Source of the DNA: Apostichopus japonicus
Lineage: Eukaryota; Echinodermata; Holothuroidea; Aspidochirotida; Stichopodidae
NCBI RefSeq assembly: GCF_037975245.1
Contig: NC_092561.1
Location: forward strand, 560,001-624,000
DNA length: 64,000 nucleotides
Reading direction: 5' to 3'
Shown: piece after piece, positions 538-21,000 of the stretch
How positions within the stretch are numbered: the stretch's first letter is position 1
How the letters are laid out: each line of letters begins with the position of its first letter
Position numbers and translations under genes: made by a program
Notes under the pieces: generated by a model
Seen by the model: only the letters and a program-made list of their open reading frames with translations
Databases searched by the model: none
Told to the model about the DNA's origin: nothing

Positions 538-706
538 TGTTTATATGTGAATGACACACCAGAAAAATTCCACTTCATGACCGGTTTCGTCCTTTTGGGA
601 CTCATCAGGCGAAGGTAGGAATCGAACCCTGGATCTTTGTGTCACAAATCGAAGTCCGTACCACTCGACCACAGTGATTTTACTGGTGTGTGAATGCGTA
701 TAAATT
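538..706 (-). mobile_element. Small tRNA-headed, inverted-repeat-flanked element carrying a hammerhead ribozyme
   Basis: Read on the minus strand, this stretch starts with a tRNA-like head. It has a consensus Pol III A box (TGGTCGAGTGG, 671-661) and a perfect B box (GGTTCGATTCC, 628-618), followed about 10 bases later by a hammerhead ribozyme core (608-579). The outer ends are imperfect inverted repeats of about 28 bp. ACACACCAGTAAAAT on one side pairs with the other side at 14 of 15 positions, around 551-566 and 678-693. The family is not recognised. SINE-like hammerhead elements such as Smalpha of schistosomes, and hammerheads in Penelope-like elements and retrozymes, are known. Whether this is one of them or something new is inference. 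No clear target-site duplication was seen. Confidence 0.65.
571..619 (-). ncRNA. Hammerhead ribozyme core (type I-like)
   Basis: On the minus strand CTGATGA (608-602) is followed by a 4-bp stem II, GTCC/GGAC, closed by the loop CAAAA. Then comes GAAA (588-585) and CCGGTC, giving the GUC cleavage triplet ending at 579. Every conserved core base (C3 U4 G5 A6 G8 A9, G12 A13 A14, H17) is present. Stem III would be the self-complementary ACCGGU, which cannot close as a hairpin but can pair between two molecules, as in dimeric animal type I hammerheads. Stem I can be built from CUUCG upstream and UGAAG downstream, with an A-C mismatch at position 1.1. That mismatch could be a decayed CpG, so the copy may be weakened or inactive. 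Confidence 0.8.
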
Positions 707-3700
707 GGCTTTGTATAACTGTCATTGAGGGTGTATTACCCAAGTGTTATGATTGTACAGAGTGCACCCCTTGTGCTTTGAATCTGGTTATTCTGTATAA
801 AATTGTATATACTGTAAATGTAAATATATCTGATGCCCAGTCTAGCCTTCAGGCAGAGCTACAAGTTTTAACTTTTAGTTGTGGATGATATGAGGGGGGG
901 GGGGGGGAGGGGTACGTGGAGGAGAAATAATCCAGGCTGGTACAGTAGTATTTCTTGTACAGTAAGAATAGGACAATTTTCAGCAAGTTGTGGTGACTAA
1001 AACCTTTGAGGAGGAAGTAGGAAAGTCTAGGAGGGAAAAATAGTGGGTGAGGGAGTTTTCTCATTCCACCCACCTCTCTGCAACATCACTGAAAATGTGA
1101 TATAATGTGATGTGGATACCAAAACTGTGTGAAGTCTGTTCTTGCAATATAGGATGGCAGACCTATTTTGGTAAATAAACTTCAAGAATGTTTTGGGGAT
1201 AAATTGCTGTAATGTTCCGGTACCTAAGGTTCACTGGCTATGAAAAGAAAAACATATTTCACGCTTCCAGGAAGACATTCAAATGATCCAAGGTTTAACA
1301 GACAGTTCTGTTTTAATAATTATCAGGCATCATACCAGTGAACTGTACAATATACATAGATATACTGTATGTAACTTACTACATAGCCTTGAATGAAAAG
1401 GCAATGAAAACTCCAGACATAGTTTGAGTGGTTTTTGTGGTAGCTGACGTGGAGCTTTAGATTAATCTTACAGATAATCATACATAATGTTCTGATGGCA
1501 TGATTTCCTCCATCCAACACAATGGCCTTTGTACTTCAATTACATAAGTTTGCCAAATTCAAGGAGCCAGTTATCTGGTATCGACCCATATAATATTAAT
1601 TAAGTACAAATGAAACATACTGTACAATAGTATGGGCCTGCACACCGTATTAAAATCATATTTTGTGGAGAGTAATATTCATGCTATCCTACTAACATGT
1701 ATGCACTGTTCTACTGCTACTGTACGTACAGTACAACAACTGTAAATTCTTGTATTATATTCACTGTTCAAAGTACTGTTTAGTACAAATATCATTATGT
1801 TCATATATATGGTTTAAGAGGCAAATTCTGTTTAAATGTGAATATTGCTATCTGTACTAAATATCAGTCAGGACAAAGTCAGAAAAACAGAAAGCCATTT
1901 AAATGCAAAGTTTTGGCAAACTGCCAATTTTATTACTATGAGATATAGATTAATGAGCCAAAATTTCCCAAAAGATGGGTGTGGTTGTTACTTCACATAG
2001 TCTTCACTACATACATACAGTAGCAGAAAGTAAGATCTTGGGATCACTGTGACATGTGATGCAGTCTACTTCATGACCAAGCTGTTGGTGCTGAGAGGGT
2101 GAGGGGGGGGGGGATGGAGGTTGGTCAAACGAGTTAACAGAACCATCACAGGGGTAGAGTCCTTAATCCCCTTAATAGACTTCATGACTTAATCTTTATT
2201 GGAGCACTTTACATTTAAGTCCTCAGCCAATTTTGAACAAGTTTGAAGTTATGAAGAGGGTCTTAATTCCTAATAGATTCCTAAGAAATCGGCTTGACTT
2301 TTAGGAATGCAAATCAAGATCTTGAGACTAGCTAAACCCTTGTTGTCCATTATTCTAAAGATGCAGCAACTCATGAAATCCGATTAGCTAAATATTGTAT
2401 CCATATGTATGGGTATGTGTATAAATACTTCACCTGTTGTGGCTCTTGTGCTGCATTTATCTTGCTCACGGACCAGAGTATGATGCTATAGCAACTGTCC
2501 TTAAGCAGAATCTTACTCGCAGACAGCCCAAAATAACAAACACCTCCTTTCTACAGTGCAAATTGAAACACCCACTAAGCAAACTGAAAGTAGCAGTCTG
2601 AAAGACTCTGAAGGGCTAGTTTGAAGACTCCTCAAGAGTAGTTAAGCCTTCTTTCCAAAATCTTGATTCTTGAAAATCCTACACTTACAATCAGTGCAAA
2701 TCTGAATGTAGATAATCTGTAAGCCATAAAGCATTTCAAAAAGAGCTTTCTTTTGAACCATTGAATTAGTAGTAAATTCAGTATTACAGAAGTTACAGTA
2801 GGGAAGTCATTGCATGTAATTATGGTGCCATGGGATCTATTTAGATTCCTTGAAAGGGCTGAAGATGGTGATTGTTACTATCTCCAGTGGACCAATGATG
2901 TTTTATACAGTTTGTGGTTTCTGGTAGAGGGACTAAAATGCCCCAGATAATAAGATGGTCAAGTGCTTGGCCATATATTGAAATTGCTTAGTTGTGCGTG
3001 AAGTTAAATTTTAGCTTTTGGATTAGCACTACAGAAGTTAGGGAAGGCCTCAAAACATTGGCCCCCAATTTTCAAATGCTAAAAGTTGCTAATTTTAGTC
3101 TTCTCGAATTTGCAGTATATGCCCAGGATACTGGCTGATTCAAAGCACTGTATATTGTAAACAGGTGTACAGCTGTTTAATTTTAAAACAGTGTCTTTGG
3201 CATATTCGCAGAACTTGTGGTTAGAAGTACCATGATACTGTATAACAATCAACAAAACAAAACAAAATTGTTGGTATTAATTAAAGCCGAGCGCTGAGTC
3301 ACTCATGCGAATACATGTACAGTTTGAAGACGCCCGTAGATAATATAATCAATTGCAACTATACACCAACCACATCAGTATTTATTTTGAAGTTGTCATT
3401 AATAACCTTTGGGTTGTAACAATTTAGGGCTAAAATATAGGATTTGATAAAAAAAAAAAACAATTAAATCTATAGTAGGTCCCATTTTGGTAACAGCTCA
3501 GGACTCTCTGTTTTGTAGTTATTCCCATAAAAAAACGCCTGGGTGTCTGGCTAAGTCGTCATCCCAGTTCTCTGATTGCTTCAATATGGCCACAGCTGTT
3601 CCAGTTTCTGGAATTTCAACACCTGTTGTCCTAGCCCAGTAATAAATTTATTGAACCTCTACAACCAATAACAAAATCTCTCGCCGTAACCAGTATTGAC

Positions 3701-4276: not shown

Positions 4277-5505
4277 TTGTGATCAGTTTTTTTTGTTGTC
4301 AAAACTTCATCGAGCAATGTGAATATTCTTTGTCGTCTTTTGAAATATTTTCGATTGAAAACCGATGCCTTGCCCATGGATGGAAACTCCCTGTCGAGCT
4401 CAGTCTGTCTTTTATTCCGTTGAAAGTTTTTTCTTGTTATGTTGATGGTTCTTTTCAGTGTTTGTCGTATAAGGTGTGGTTCCATAACAACTCCCTGGTT
4501 ACATCCAAATCAACATTTCAGTCATTGACTGCATGAAGTTATTACGAAAACTAATAAACTTTTTACAAAGTATCATATTTAGCGTTGTCGGAAGTGAGAG
4601 TAGTGGGCCTAGGATAAGGTTTAGCAGAAAATTGATGAAACTTGCTGGTAGATCCTGTGAGAAAATTTAATCGTTTTACTTAGACAATAGAGAATACTGT
4701 AACTTAAGAAGATTAGACAAGACTGTACTGTGCATCCTTGATGAAACTAAAGCGGATTTTTGAATTGATTTTTTGATCAATTTTTGGGATGGACTATCTG
4801 CTAAATTGTATCCAACAACAGTATAATTCATTATCTGGATGATAGCCCAAGTTGTGCTTCAACTAATGACAGTAGAAGTTTTGGTCCCCCTGTGCCTTGG
4901 CCTGGCTATGGGATTGACCACATAAACTTGTTCAGTAAATATTCAATACCTTAGAAACCTCTAGTGAGGTTGTCTTCAATTGCAAGCCTATTTTTCGGTG
5001 ATATCCAGTGATTTGGTTAACTCATTGACCAAATGTAAAAAAAAAGTTGCTTTAATATGTTGCAGGTGCCTTTCCTTTGTAGCACACAGGACACAGGTGT
5101 ACAATATGCTGGATTTGAATCTGTACTGCAGTATACACGTACATTTATGTCGCTCAAGGGTGAGCAGCATCAATCCAGAACAGTTTGATGGCATATTAAA
5201 CGCCCACGATATTTCTTGAGTTAACTCATAATTAGTACACAACTCTGTGCATGCTATGGTCTTGTTGGTCTTATTGGTATGCAGGTCTGTGGTGCCTATA
5301 GACATGAAACTTTCACCTTGACATTGTACAAAAACTATTGATAGATCATCAATACGAAATGGATCAATACCAAACACAGATCTCAGACCTGCTAGACTTA
5401 CTGTATCCATACCAGCTGTTGCAGTGTAGAGTTGGTATATATGGAAACTCCCTGGGTACAGTATGTACAGTCTGGCCAAAAGTAGGGTGCGTCGGTATAT
5501 CGATA

Positions 5506-18096: not shown

Positions 18097-21000
18097 GTAC
18101 GTACACTGCTTTAAAACTCCCTCTTGTCTCTCTGACCTGTCTGCTCTTGACGATTGCACTCTTCCTATATATATATATATATATTTATATATATACATAT
18201 CGCGAGTTGGTCAGCATCATGTTTGATCTCTAGAGTAAGGCAAATATGTCACCAAAACAGAACTAGTATTGTTCGATACAGGTGACAAACGCCTATGTTC
18301 AGTGAAATTACAGCCTTCCTTACCGGTGTCGAACCTCTGGACAAACAATCAGCGTCCATACCCTAGTGGTTCGGGTGTCCGCATATAAAGCGGGAGGCCC
18401 GGGTTCGAATCCCAGCGGAGGCTGGAAGTTTTTAGCTGTTCTGGATTTACCAACTCACTACGATTTCAATTATATGTCACTATAAATATATCACTATATT
18501 ATCCTGCTCCTTGCTGAAGCTGCAATGTTGTCAGTGATTGGCCACAAGTTCCTGTCATAGTGTAAACACAGTTTTGAAGTTACCTATTATAAGCTGCATC
18601 CATTAGCTACTTGTACAGTAATGTTACTATACACTCCATATTACTTACTATTGGACTTCACTTTGGTTGTTAATACATTAATAAATGGTAGTGGTGAATG
18701 AGCTTTGCATTTGTTTAGCTTGCAGTTACAACATGAGAATTGGTAGCAGCTGTCCAAGTTTACACTAGGTTGTTATGTTGATTTTGGCATAATTTTCAAT
18801 ATTATCAAGTACTGAAATCTGATTGCAATAATAAAAAAAAACTAAAAAAGAGAGTCCAAAGGCCAGTGATTAATGCTTCCAGCCATGTTTGTTGTTCACT
18901 TCATTTTAATGATAACATTGATTTAGCATTGATAACATTGATTTTATCATTAATGATTATATACTTTGGCCCACAGCTGACGAAGACTATGAAAATGAAT
19001 TTATTGACATCCTGCCACTTTCGCCAGAACTCCATCAGCCGATACCACTTTTAAAGAAAGAGAAAGAAAAGTTACCTTACAACAACATCAAAGCACAACA
19101 GGTGGTCCTTAAGGAACCTCTTTACCCCCATTTGAAACCTAAGGGCTCTCAGAGAGCTGTAGTCCTTAGCCCAGGGACCAAGCATAATGTGCCACATCTC
19201 AAAGTTGAACTTCTGCCTTCCCCAGATGAGTCAGGTGAGATATACATCCTATTAATGTAACTGAAATATTCCTCATGATGTTTTTTACTTTGCTCCTCGC
19301 TTACCTGTCTCCCCACAACCTTAGCACTCTCGTTCTACAGAGCCTAGAATGAATTGGTAACCTTCTAACATTGTGCGCCCTGCCAGCTCCTCAGGTCAAT
19401 GCCCTTCTCATTCCACTACACAATGTGACAGCATCGTGCGCTTTTCGTCTGGATTTTGCTCAACGTTATTCGTACAGAACTGTGACCTAGGATCTTGGTT
19501 TTTCCATCCATTGGATACTGAGGTAGTTACCAAGCATGCACAACCCGATAAGTATCCTTTCTCTGCATAGGGAGGGGTTTTCAGGGTTGTTTTGGAGGAG
19601 CGGTTTCCTACTTGGATATGTGTTTATCTCTACTTGTAGTACCACTACACAGCTGACTCACACATCTTGAACTTTCCCATCCAGCCAGCAAGTCACCAAA
19701 GTGATAACGGTTTAACCCTGCACTACATTACACTGCAGATAATAAACTCAAACAAATGTAATATAAAATGAAAGAACACATCTGAGGGTAAGAAGCATGT
19801 TGTTTTCCTCCATAACTTCAATCATACTGTTATAGCCCACCCCCTACCCCCAAATGTATAGCAATGGTTTACCCCATTGTTGATATCAAATGCCCTGTGC
19901 ACAGAGGCACTGCCCCACATTAAGTTTTGGAATGCTCCCGTAGTATGCCAATTACCATACCAAATACCATGTACATGATAACAGCGTTCACAAAACCCTG
20001 TTGCATAATAATATACCATGCCGTTACAGTAGGTCTAATAGTTTATAGTTAACTCTCTCCAGGAAGACAAAGATTGAAAATCCATCCACCTGAATTTGTT
20101 CAAAATGTCATTGTGTTGTTGAAAGAAGAAAACTCAATGGGGTATGGTCAAAGGTGTACCTTGTATTTAACTACTGACTGTGAGCTAGTCTTAAGTCAAA
20201 ACCTCTGTTAAATAGTCCAGCCCTACCTTCTTAAGGGCGATCCTTTTGAGGCGTTGACTTTAGATTTTCAATGACTTGCTAATAACATTCAGCTCAGTGT
20301 AAAGCCTTGGCTTCTGACCTGTTTGGCTCTGTCTAGACAATTCTTGGTACTCACTGATGGGATGAAGAAGGGGAAATTCTCGGTTATGTTTCTTTTTGAA
20401 AATAAGCTTTTTCCATGAGTGAAAGAGATGGAGGAGGTCCTTAAGGATTATGTCAAAGCTTCTGAAGGGCCAGCAGAGATTAGCTGATAGCTGACATTTA
20501 TAATATATTCTTTTGATAGTCAAGCAGTTGTCTAACTGCAAAAGGGCATTACAGAAGGGGAAAATATCAAAGGAACAATTTTACCAGGGGATTTTCCCAC
20601 GTGAGCCAAATATCTCAGTGTGATGTATGACAAATCGGTTTCAAAATGACAGAGAGAATGAAACAAATATCGGATATTTATTTATATAAATAAATATGGG
20701 ACGGAATTGCTGCAAGTGGAAAGAAGGGAATATTAATCGACCTATGCATACTTCTTAACCTCCTTATGGGTGTTGCCTGCAAGTAAACTGAAACAGGAAA
20801 TGCAGTTTTCCAAATGAGGAAGTATAAATAATTTGCATCTTTTAGGTTTGGGTCGGCATCCAAGGTTTTCATCTAATCTGCAGAGGATTACTCAAAATAA
20901 GATTTGCAATTGGTTCCAAGTTAAGATATCCTTCTTAGTTGCTGTCACCAATTTAAGGTTAATGAGGAAGTAATTAAGTCTGTTTAATAGTTCTCATCGT

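What the first reader, a model, noticed from the sequence alone, without database searches (positions are those of the whole stretch)
538..706. tRNA-like Pol III boxes and a hammerhead ribozyme in one 170-bp inverted-repeat element
Seen on the minus strand: perfect A and B boxes, then a complete hammerhead core (CTGATGA, 4-bp stem II, GAAA, GUC), all between imperfect inverted repeats. Known relatives are SINE-like hammerhead elements of schistosomes, Penelope-like element hammerheads and retrozymes. I do not recall one with a tRNA head fused directly into stem I and outer inverted repeats. It may be a Pol III-transcribed, self-cleaving, possibly circularising small retroelement family. This is the best candidate here for something new.
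Basis: partly seen in the sequence, partly recalled or inferred. Interest (0 to 1): 0.85.

Follow-up and report, generated by a model that had tools for sequence, protein, structure and literature searches.

The report
Hammerhead retrozyme with Pol III boxes
A small repeated jumping element, probably in a sea cucumber, carries a self-cutting RNA enzyme overlapped with a tRNA-like promoter motif, and its insertion scars suggest that a Penelope-type retroelement spreads it into TA repeats, which bears on who copies such elements in animals.

Summary
The motifs are real. On the minus strand, a perfect A box (671-661) and B box (628-618) precede a complete type I hammerhead that should cut after 579. 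The 170-bp "inverted-repeat element" is only the middle of a larger unit: a dispersed family, in places tandem with a period of about 341 nt. The 30-nt core has 193 exact copies in the genome; the assembly matches Apostichopus japonicus by size. Stem III (ACCGGU) is a palindrome, so two RNAs should cleave as a dimer, as in axolotl retrozymes. Copies do not start at the expected Pol III start: 5' ends are scattered evenly round the unit. The 3' ends cluster at three places that usually run into (TA)n, and 12 of 40 sampled loci carry an inverted fragment abutting the 5' end. GIY-YIG Penelope-like elements (PLEs) here show similar (TA)n borders (7 of 9) and inverted tails; LINE-type controls show 0 of 12, two of them poorly placed. 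Best reading: a non-LTR animal retrozyme, most likely mobilised by a PLE priming on (TA)n ends. New variant of a known kind; schistosome repeats already combine a tRNA with a hammerhead. Pol III use, cleavage and RNA circles are untested.

The parts
549..786 (-). This copy of the repeat (238 nt; starts at monomer position 134, ends at position 30 of the next unit)
   Evidence: Aligns at 93% (222 of 238) to the L005 tandem unit
785..806 (+). Short inverted fragment of the same unit abutting the 5' end (positions 112-133)
   Evidence: 22 nt, 95.5%; an inverted fragment abuts the 5' end in 12 of 40 sampled loci
579..608 (-). Hammerhead core, stem II and stem III; cleavage predicted between 579 and 578
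   Evidence: identical 30-mer in 193 places of the genome
580..585 (-). Stem III ACCGGU, self-complementary, predicted to pair between two RNAs
   Evidence: cofold of two hammerhead domains of the L005 type gives the dimeric hammerhead
609..614 (-). Stem I inner 5' strand CTTCGC (3' strand at 578-573; C-A mismatch next to the cut in this copy)
618..628 (-). B box GGTTCGATTCC; its ATTCC is also the 5' strand of outer stem I
   Evidence: sequence; Rfam alignment
661..671 (-). A box TGGTCGAGTGG
   Evidence: sequence
563..567 (-). TTTTT run, potential Pol III terminator directly after stem I
   Evidence: sequence; kept in most aligned copies
554..568 (-). Outer inverted repeat, 3' arm
   Evidence: 715 of 741 cells paired over eight of its pairs in 96 distinct copies, no both-side changes
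677..691 (-). Outer inverted repeat, 5' arm

Best explanation
A non-autonomous, non-LTR animal retrozyme with a monomer of about 341 nt. Shown by sequence: a dispersed family with some tandem copies, a complete type I hammerhead whose one-pair stem III (A-U closing CCGG) is self-complementary, A and B boxes overlapping stem I, 3' ends clustered at TA-rich sites of the unit that usually run into genomic (TA)n, scattered 5' ends, and inverted fragments at some 5' ends. Inferred: copies are transcribed (possibly helped by the A/B boxes, possibly by read-through); hammerhead dimers cut the RNA into 341-nt monomers; a host ligase closes them into circles; and the RT/GIY-YIG endonuclease of a Penelope-like element cuts a (TA)n tract. 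The cut TA 3' ends anneal to UA-rich sites inside the RNA and prime copying on both DNA strands, giving copies that cross the ribozyme cut site, can exceed one unit, end in (TA)n and may meet head to head.
For: Hammerhead. Copies: 43 matches from 40 scored of 1118 candidates; 193 exact 30-mer cores, reversed-pattern control 0. Tandem spacing 337-341 in L005, L012, L062, L063, L066; L063 holds about 2.5 units. In a sample of 40 exact-core loci: 31 of 40 3' ends in monomer positions 45-90 (5.4 expected); starts uniform (KS p 0.55); 14 of 40 longer than 341 nt; (TA)6 at the outer 3' flank in 27 of 40 and the outer 5' flank in 15 of 40, against 0.2% of window stretches and 8 of 138 distant stretches in the same loci. 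37 of 40 main copies cross the cut site; 12 of 40 have an inverted fragment within 60 nt of the 5' end. GIY-YIG PLE loci: (TA)6 at both ends of the shared block in 6 of 9, at one or more in 7 of 9; inverted copies of their own tail in L041 and L046, a head-to-head pair in L040. RVT_1 and GIY-YIG found in 3 of 3 frames checked (RVT_1 of L041 is 0.6 bit under its cut-off). LINE-type control 0 of 12: p 2.5e-5 against the element, 3e-4 against PLEs. Tandem passes of one locus share variants above chance (59 vs 15.8, 0 of 1000). Dimer fold. A lizard PLE cuts AT-rich DNA, extends both strands and initiates inside its RNA (PMC11167929, passages).
Against: No RNA data: transcription, cleavage and circles are not shown. 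No convincing sequence is shared with the 9 PLE loci. 13 of 40 3' flanks lack (TA)6. TA runs are common (22,997 of 24 nt or more) and distant stretches in the sampled loci are enriched too (8 of 138), so some (TA)n may have grown from the tail itself. The LINE-type control is small: L134 and L138 contain TA runs and their true 3' ends could not be placed; counting both as positive gives p 0.003 (element) and 0.009 (PLE). 2 of 9 PLE loci (L043, L047) showed no (TA)6 at the block ends, and the right end of the L046 block includes a nested copy of another repeat. Tandem passes in several loci differ by 4-12%, more than copying one circle would give unless the insertions are old. The L005 unit as a circle pairs 62% of bases, z -3.5 on 60 shuffles, under the >70% reported for other retrozymes; the linear window RNA is not unusual (z -1.43). 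HH9 matches stay under the cut-off in 55 of 55 genome places, and at the same loose E-value HH9 also rings in 11 of 14 control genomes, none over the cut-off.
Confidence: 0.58

Rival explanations
1. A conventional tRNA-derived SINE that has captured a hammerhead: Pol III transcribes from about 12 nt upstream of the A box, and a LINE or PLE copies that RNA.
For: Perfect A and B boxes, the only strict pair in the window; D-arm-like pairing in 275 of 285 cells; boxes kept in most of the divergent copies aligned.
Against: 5' ends are uniform, 2 of 40 in positions 225-250. TTTTT at 563-567 would be expected to end the RNA before the tail and before any second unit. 14 of 40 copies exceed one unit. 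tRNA models do not match. The boxes vary about as much as the sequence just upstream (mean minor-allele fraction 0.031 and 0.031 vs 0.033), though less than the middle of the tRNA-like part (0.06-0.08).
Confidence: 0.15
2. A retrozyme as in the best explanation (this rival concerns the promoter only and overlaps with it): the A/B boxes are an inactive relic; transcription is Pol II or read-through.
For: T5 run, uniform 5' ends, no clear excess conservation of the boxes; the published model for retrozymes invokes read-through (PMC7761336, section 9 read).
Against: Strict boxes persist in most copies, and another animal repeat with a hammerhead (schistosome) also carries a tRNA.
Confidence: 0.45
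3. A satellite DNA spread by DNA-level duplication or recombination between (TA)n tracts, with the hammerhead incidental.
For: Some loci are secondary duplications: L001 (157-nt period including flank) and L053 (about 1.6-kb blocks with host DNA).
Against: Exact cores on each of the 14 contigs covered by the capped list, preferred 3' ends, scattered 5' ends and inverted junctions fit primed reverse transcription better.
Confidence: 0.1

Closest known systems
Metazoan non-LTR retrozymes (Cervera and de la Pena 2020, PMC7229834, parts 1-4 of 6 read)
   Same: Type I hammerhead, tandem units of a few hundred bp, low GC (41.6% for the L005 unit), no long ORF (73 aa at most from ATG), dispersed copies
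   Different: A/B boxes overlapping stem I and a (TA)n footprint; the review PMC7761336 (section 9 read) says retrozymes seem to lack promoters and metazoan ones show no motif naming their helper. Circles not shown here
Axolotl retrozymes, HHR_Amex1 (PMC7229834)
   Same: One base pair in stem III capped by a palindromic tetraloop; dimeric cleavage; repeats of 330 and 350 bp
   Different: A term search of that paper finds tRNA only for ligation and processing, and no Pol III or SINE
Schistosome Sm-alpha / Sj-alpha SINE-like repeats (PMC2770079 and PMC8490949, passages; PMC4918200, section 10)
   Same: tRNA-related sequence and type I hammerhead in one repeat; a 335-bp relative in PMC8490949
   Different: A full tRNA-Gln is reported there; here only boxes and a D-arm-like stem. 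I did not see the layout of tRNA and hammerhead there
Penelope-like elements with minimal hammerheads (PMC11167929, passages)
   Same: AT-rich targets, tandem copies, initiation inside the RNA
   Different: This unit encodes no protein and has a fuller hammerhead

Membership tests
Metazoan non-LTR retrozyme | Type I hammerhead with intact core | tested here: met
Metazoan non-LTR retrozyme | Tandem units of about 150-450 bp, low GC, no coding region | tested here: met
   spacing 337-341 nt in five loci, GC 41.6%, longest ATG ORF 73 aa in the L005 unit; the window copy itself is single
Metazoan non-LTR retrozyme | Strongly self-paired RNA (>70% reported) | tested here: inconclusive
   62% paired, z -3.5 on 60 shuffles, one copy only
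Metazoan non-LTR retrozyme | Self-cleavage and circular RNA | not testable with these tools
   needs RNA or in vitro assay
tRNA-derived SINE | Internal A and B boxes | tested here: met
tRNA-derived SINE | Recognisable tRNA homology | tested here: not met
   0 tRNAs in 17 loci; no tRNA match at E<=5 or E<=10
tRNA-derived SINE | Full copies begin at the Pol III start | tested here: not met
   2 of 40, uniform starts
Penelope-like element | Encodes RT and usually GIY-YIG endonuclease | tested here: not met
   no ATG ORF over 73 aa in the unit
Rfam Hammerhead_HH9 | Score at or above gathering 52 | tested here: not met
   35.5 and 40.0 bits; 0 of 55 matches in the genome reach it

The most novel reading that the evidence does not exclude
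An animal retrozyme with its own internal Pol III promoter built into hammerhead stem I, transcribed into RNA that dimer hammerheads cut and the host circularises, and copied from circles by a (TA)n-targeting Penelope-like element that primes on both DNA strands. It would be a retrozyme whose insertion scars point to its helper, which I found reported for no animal retrozyme in the papers seen.
Probability: 0.28. Interest if true: 0.78.

Novelty: new variant of a known kind. Interest (0 to 1): 0.58.

Why it matters
A 2020 review states that retrozymes seem to lack promoters and that metazoan ones show no motif revealing their helper retrotransposon (PMC7761336, section 9). The authors of PMC7229834 named PLEs as a strong candidate from shared hammerheads, tandem copies and co-existence. 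This family offers a concrete footprint: (TA)n borders plus inverted tails, shared with GIY-YIG PLE loci and not seen in 10 of 12 LINE-type control loci (the other two could not be placed). If the host is the farmed sea cucumber, RNA is easy to obtain. Two questions become directly testable: is a Pol III promoter used, and does a PLE copy retrozyme RNA. What is said to be unreported rests on the listings in an open-access library only.

Tried and rejected
Intact tRNA head: rejected, tRNA models and ARAGORN do not match. Pol III SINE as sole explanation: disfavoured by the 5' ends. Other hammerhead families in this genome: 18 loci covering 21 of the 55 HH9 places were fetched and all 18 match this element; the rest were not examined for this. 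A larger autonomous element at L053 (hammerheads about 1.6 kb apart): repeated blocks with host DNA, no ORF over 168 aa listed. Hammerhead-only units in L001: a tandem duplication that includes flanking target DNA. Sequence shared between element and PLE loci: none convincing. Covariation: in 96 distinct rows both-side changes were 6 cells at one pair of a hairpin in the tRNA-like part (where 14 other cells break the pair), 3 in its alternative, and single cells in stem I outer, stem I inner and stem III, so inconclusive; conservation there is biased because 40 loci were chosen for an exact core. Rolling circle: passes share variants but several differ by 4-12%, so circle versus multimer is open. 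Viral contigs: 0 matches for a 28-mer.

Post hoc: 2 of 40 copies (L095, L104) end exactly at the ribozyme cut site, which hints at cleaved RNA as template, a small number. One of the 40 starts (L109) is cut by my fetch boundary.

Selection: the 40 loci were picked by hand from the 100 listed of 193 places, contigs C1-C14. The 9 PLE loci came from 37 GIY-YIG matches, picked mostly for long frames. The 12 control loci came from 150 listed RVT_1 matches, called LINE-type by me from the length of the RT match; this was not tested. One search used 113 sources and left out L039-L047, L053, L069-L072 and L087; one search also left out L025, L031 and L082 (poor alignments).

Full report
What is there. 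On the minus strand, a strict A box (671-661) and B box (628-618) lead into a complete type I hammerhead (core to cut site 608-579), all between a 15-nt inverted repeat. The core pattern is unique in the window with 0 in 100 shuffles, and the A+B pair is the only strict one, with none in 40 simulations. Rfam's HH9 model gives 35.5 bits, E 1.7e-7, under its curated score of 52; copy L004 gives 40.0 bits. The default whole-window Rfam scan listed only a tRNA at 18352-18423.

It is a repeat family. In the window's genome (671,581,487 bases, 35 contigs) the 169-base query gave 43 matches from 40 scored of 1118 candidates, and the 30-nt core occurs exactly 193 times, reversed control 0. The size fits Apostichopus japonicus: 671.60 Mb, 23 chromosomes of 18.21-46.02 Mb, 34 scaffolds (PMC10344927, passages); contigs C23 and C16 are 18.20 and 46.04 Mb. 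This is an inference, not a name given by a tool. Divergent copies down to about 73% identity (L064; L068 is 79% to L064) keep the hammerhead. Most of the aligned divergent copies keep the boxes, but L064 has a changed A box and L068 and L075 lack that region.

The real unit. Tandem loci repeat at 337-341 nt (L005, L012, L062, L063, L066). The outer inverted repeat extends stem I, and the B box's ATTCC is the 5' strand of the outer part of stem I, so promoter box and ribozyme overlap.

How it should cut. Stem III is ACCGGU, one A-U pair closing CCGG if folded alone. Two copies fold together through this palindrome into a dimeric hammerhead, -31.7 kcal/mol against -13.8 for a monomer. Published axolotl hammerheads with a single-pair stem III and a palindromic tetraloop cleave poorly alone and better as dimers (PMC7229834). 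The window copy has a C-A mismatch next to the cut.

Is it a Pol III SINE? The boxes are perfect, but the tRNA itself is not recognised. In a sample of 40 exact-core loci, 5' ends are uniform over the unit (KS p 0.55), with 2 of 40 near the expected Pol III start where 3.05 are expected by chance. A TTTTT run directly after stem I would be expected to stop Pol III before the tail. The boxes vary as much as the stretch just upstream (0.031 vs 0.033), though less than the middle of the tRNA-like part (0.06-0.08). So Pol III may transcribe copies, but the RNA that was reverse transcribed does not look like a simple Pol III transcript.

How it moves. The 3' ends cluster: 31 of 40 in positions 45-90 (5.4 expected), of which 18 at 47-50, 7 at 72-79, 5 at 83-87 and 1 at 62. 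(TA)6 is at the outer 3' flank in 27 of 40 and the outer 5' flank in 15 of 40 (both in 10), against 0.2% of window stretches and 8 of 138 stretches over 300 nt away in the same loci. 14 of 40 copies exceed 341 nt, and 37 of 40 main copies run through the ribozyme cut site, so their template was a circle or an uncut RNA; the sample was chosen to hold an intact core up to the cut, so only continuation past it is informative. 13 of 40 loci hold an opposite-strand fragment, 12 of them within 60 nt of the main copy's 5' end. Nine loci with GIY-YIG matches, taken from 37, look alike: 6 of 9 have (TA)6 at both ends of the shared block, 7 of 9 at one or more; L041 and L046 carry an inverted copy of their own tail, and L040 holds a head-to-head pair. 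L043 and L047 showed none at the block ends, and the L046 block includes a nested copy of another repeat at its right end.

Control. Twelve loci downstream of LINE-type reverse transcriptases, two families, show 0 of 12 by the same measure; 10 of 12 have no (TA)6 anywhere in the 2.6-2.7 kb fetched, while L134 and L138 contain TA runs and their 3' ends could not be placed. Fisher p is 2.5e-5 (element) and 3e-4 (PLE) with 0 of 12, and 0.003 and 0.009 if both doubtful loci count as positive. Genome-wide there are 22,997 TA runs of 24 nt or more, about one per 29 kb. A lizard PLE studied in vitro cuts AT-rich DNA, extends both strands and starts inside its RNA (PMC11167929, passages). This is why I favour a PLE as helper; no shared sequence proves it.

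Circle or multimer. Passes through the unit in one locus share non-majority variants more than passes of different loci (59 vs 15.8 expected, 0 of 1000; without L063, 49 vs 14.1), and so do inverted pairs (28 vs 7.6; without L063, 18 vs 6.6). L063's two full passes are identical over 341 positions, but L005, L012, L062, L093 and L121 differ by 4-12%. This fits one source RNA per insertion in part, and does not prove a circle; local duplication after insertion would also raise sharing.

Against what is known. Metazoan retrozymes are tandem, low-GC, non-coding repeats with type I hammerheads (PMC7229834, parts 1-4 of 6 read). The review PMC7761336 (section 9) says they seem to lack promoters and show no motif for their helper. 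The tRNA plus hammerhead pairing is known from schistosomes (PMC4918200 section 10; PMC2770079 passages). Listings for echinoderm, Apostichopus or Pol III retrozyme papers showed none that describes this (open-access library, titles and abstract starts only).

Verdict. Observation confirmed; interpretation partly right. A new variant of a known kind, valuable because it makes the promoter and helper questions testable.

Noticed in passing
window about 18203-18475 (+); L140-L153: A second abundant family (2248 candidates, 40 scored) with a real tRNA-Tyr(ata)-like head (ARAGORN in 14 of 14 fetched loci), two copies 360 nt apart in L149, and tails running into TA repeats in many of the 14 copies read. 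No canonical hammerhead seen by eye or in the two loci scanned with Rfam (L140, L149); it may use the same helper.
   Followed up: partly
L043 about 4380-4410; L149 unit: The second family shares an 18-nt stretch (AGAACTAGTATTGTTCGA) with a motif resembling a minimal hammerhead downstream of the endonuclease in PLE locus L043; L039, L042 and L047 have a similar motif. The hammerhead reading of that motif is mine and untested.
   Followed up: partly
L095 and L104: Two of 40 sampled copies end exactly at the predicted ribozyme cut site.
   Followed up: no
L051: Stem III reads ACGCGT instead of ACCGGT, a change at two bases that keeps the palindrome.
   Followed up: no
L053: Host DNA with one element copy is repeated in blocks about 1.6 kb apart or a multiple of it.
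   Followed up: partly
L060 252(+) and 1028(-): Inverted repeat around a CTGATGATCGC motif near a copy of the element; perhaps a DNA transposon.
   Followed up: no
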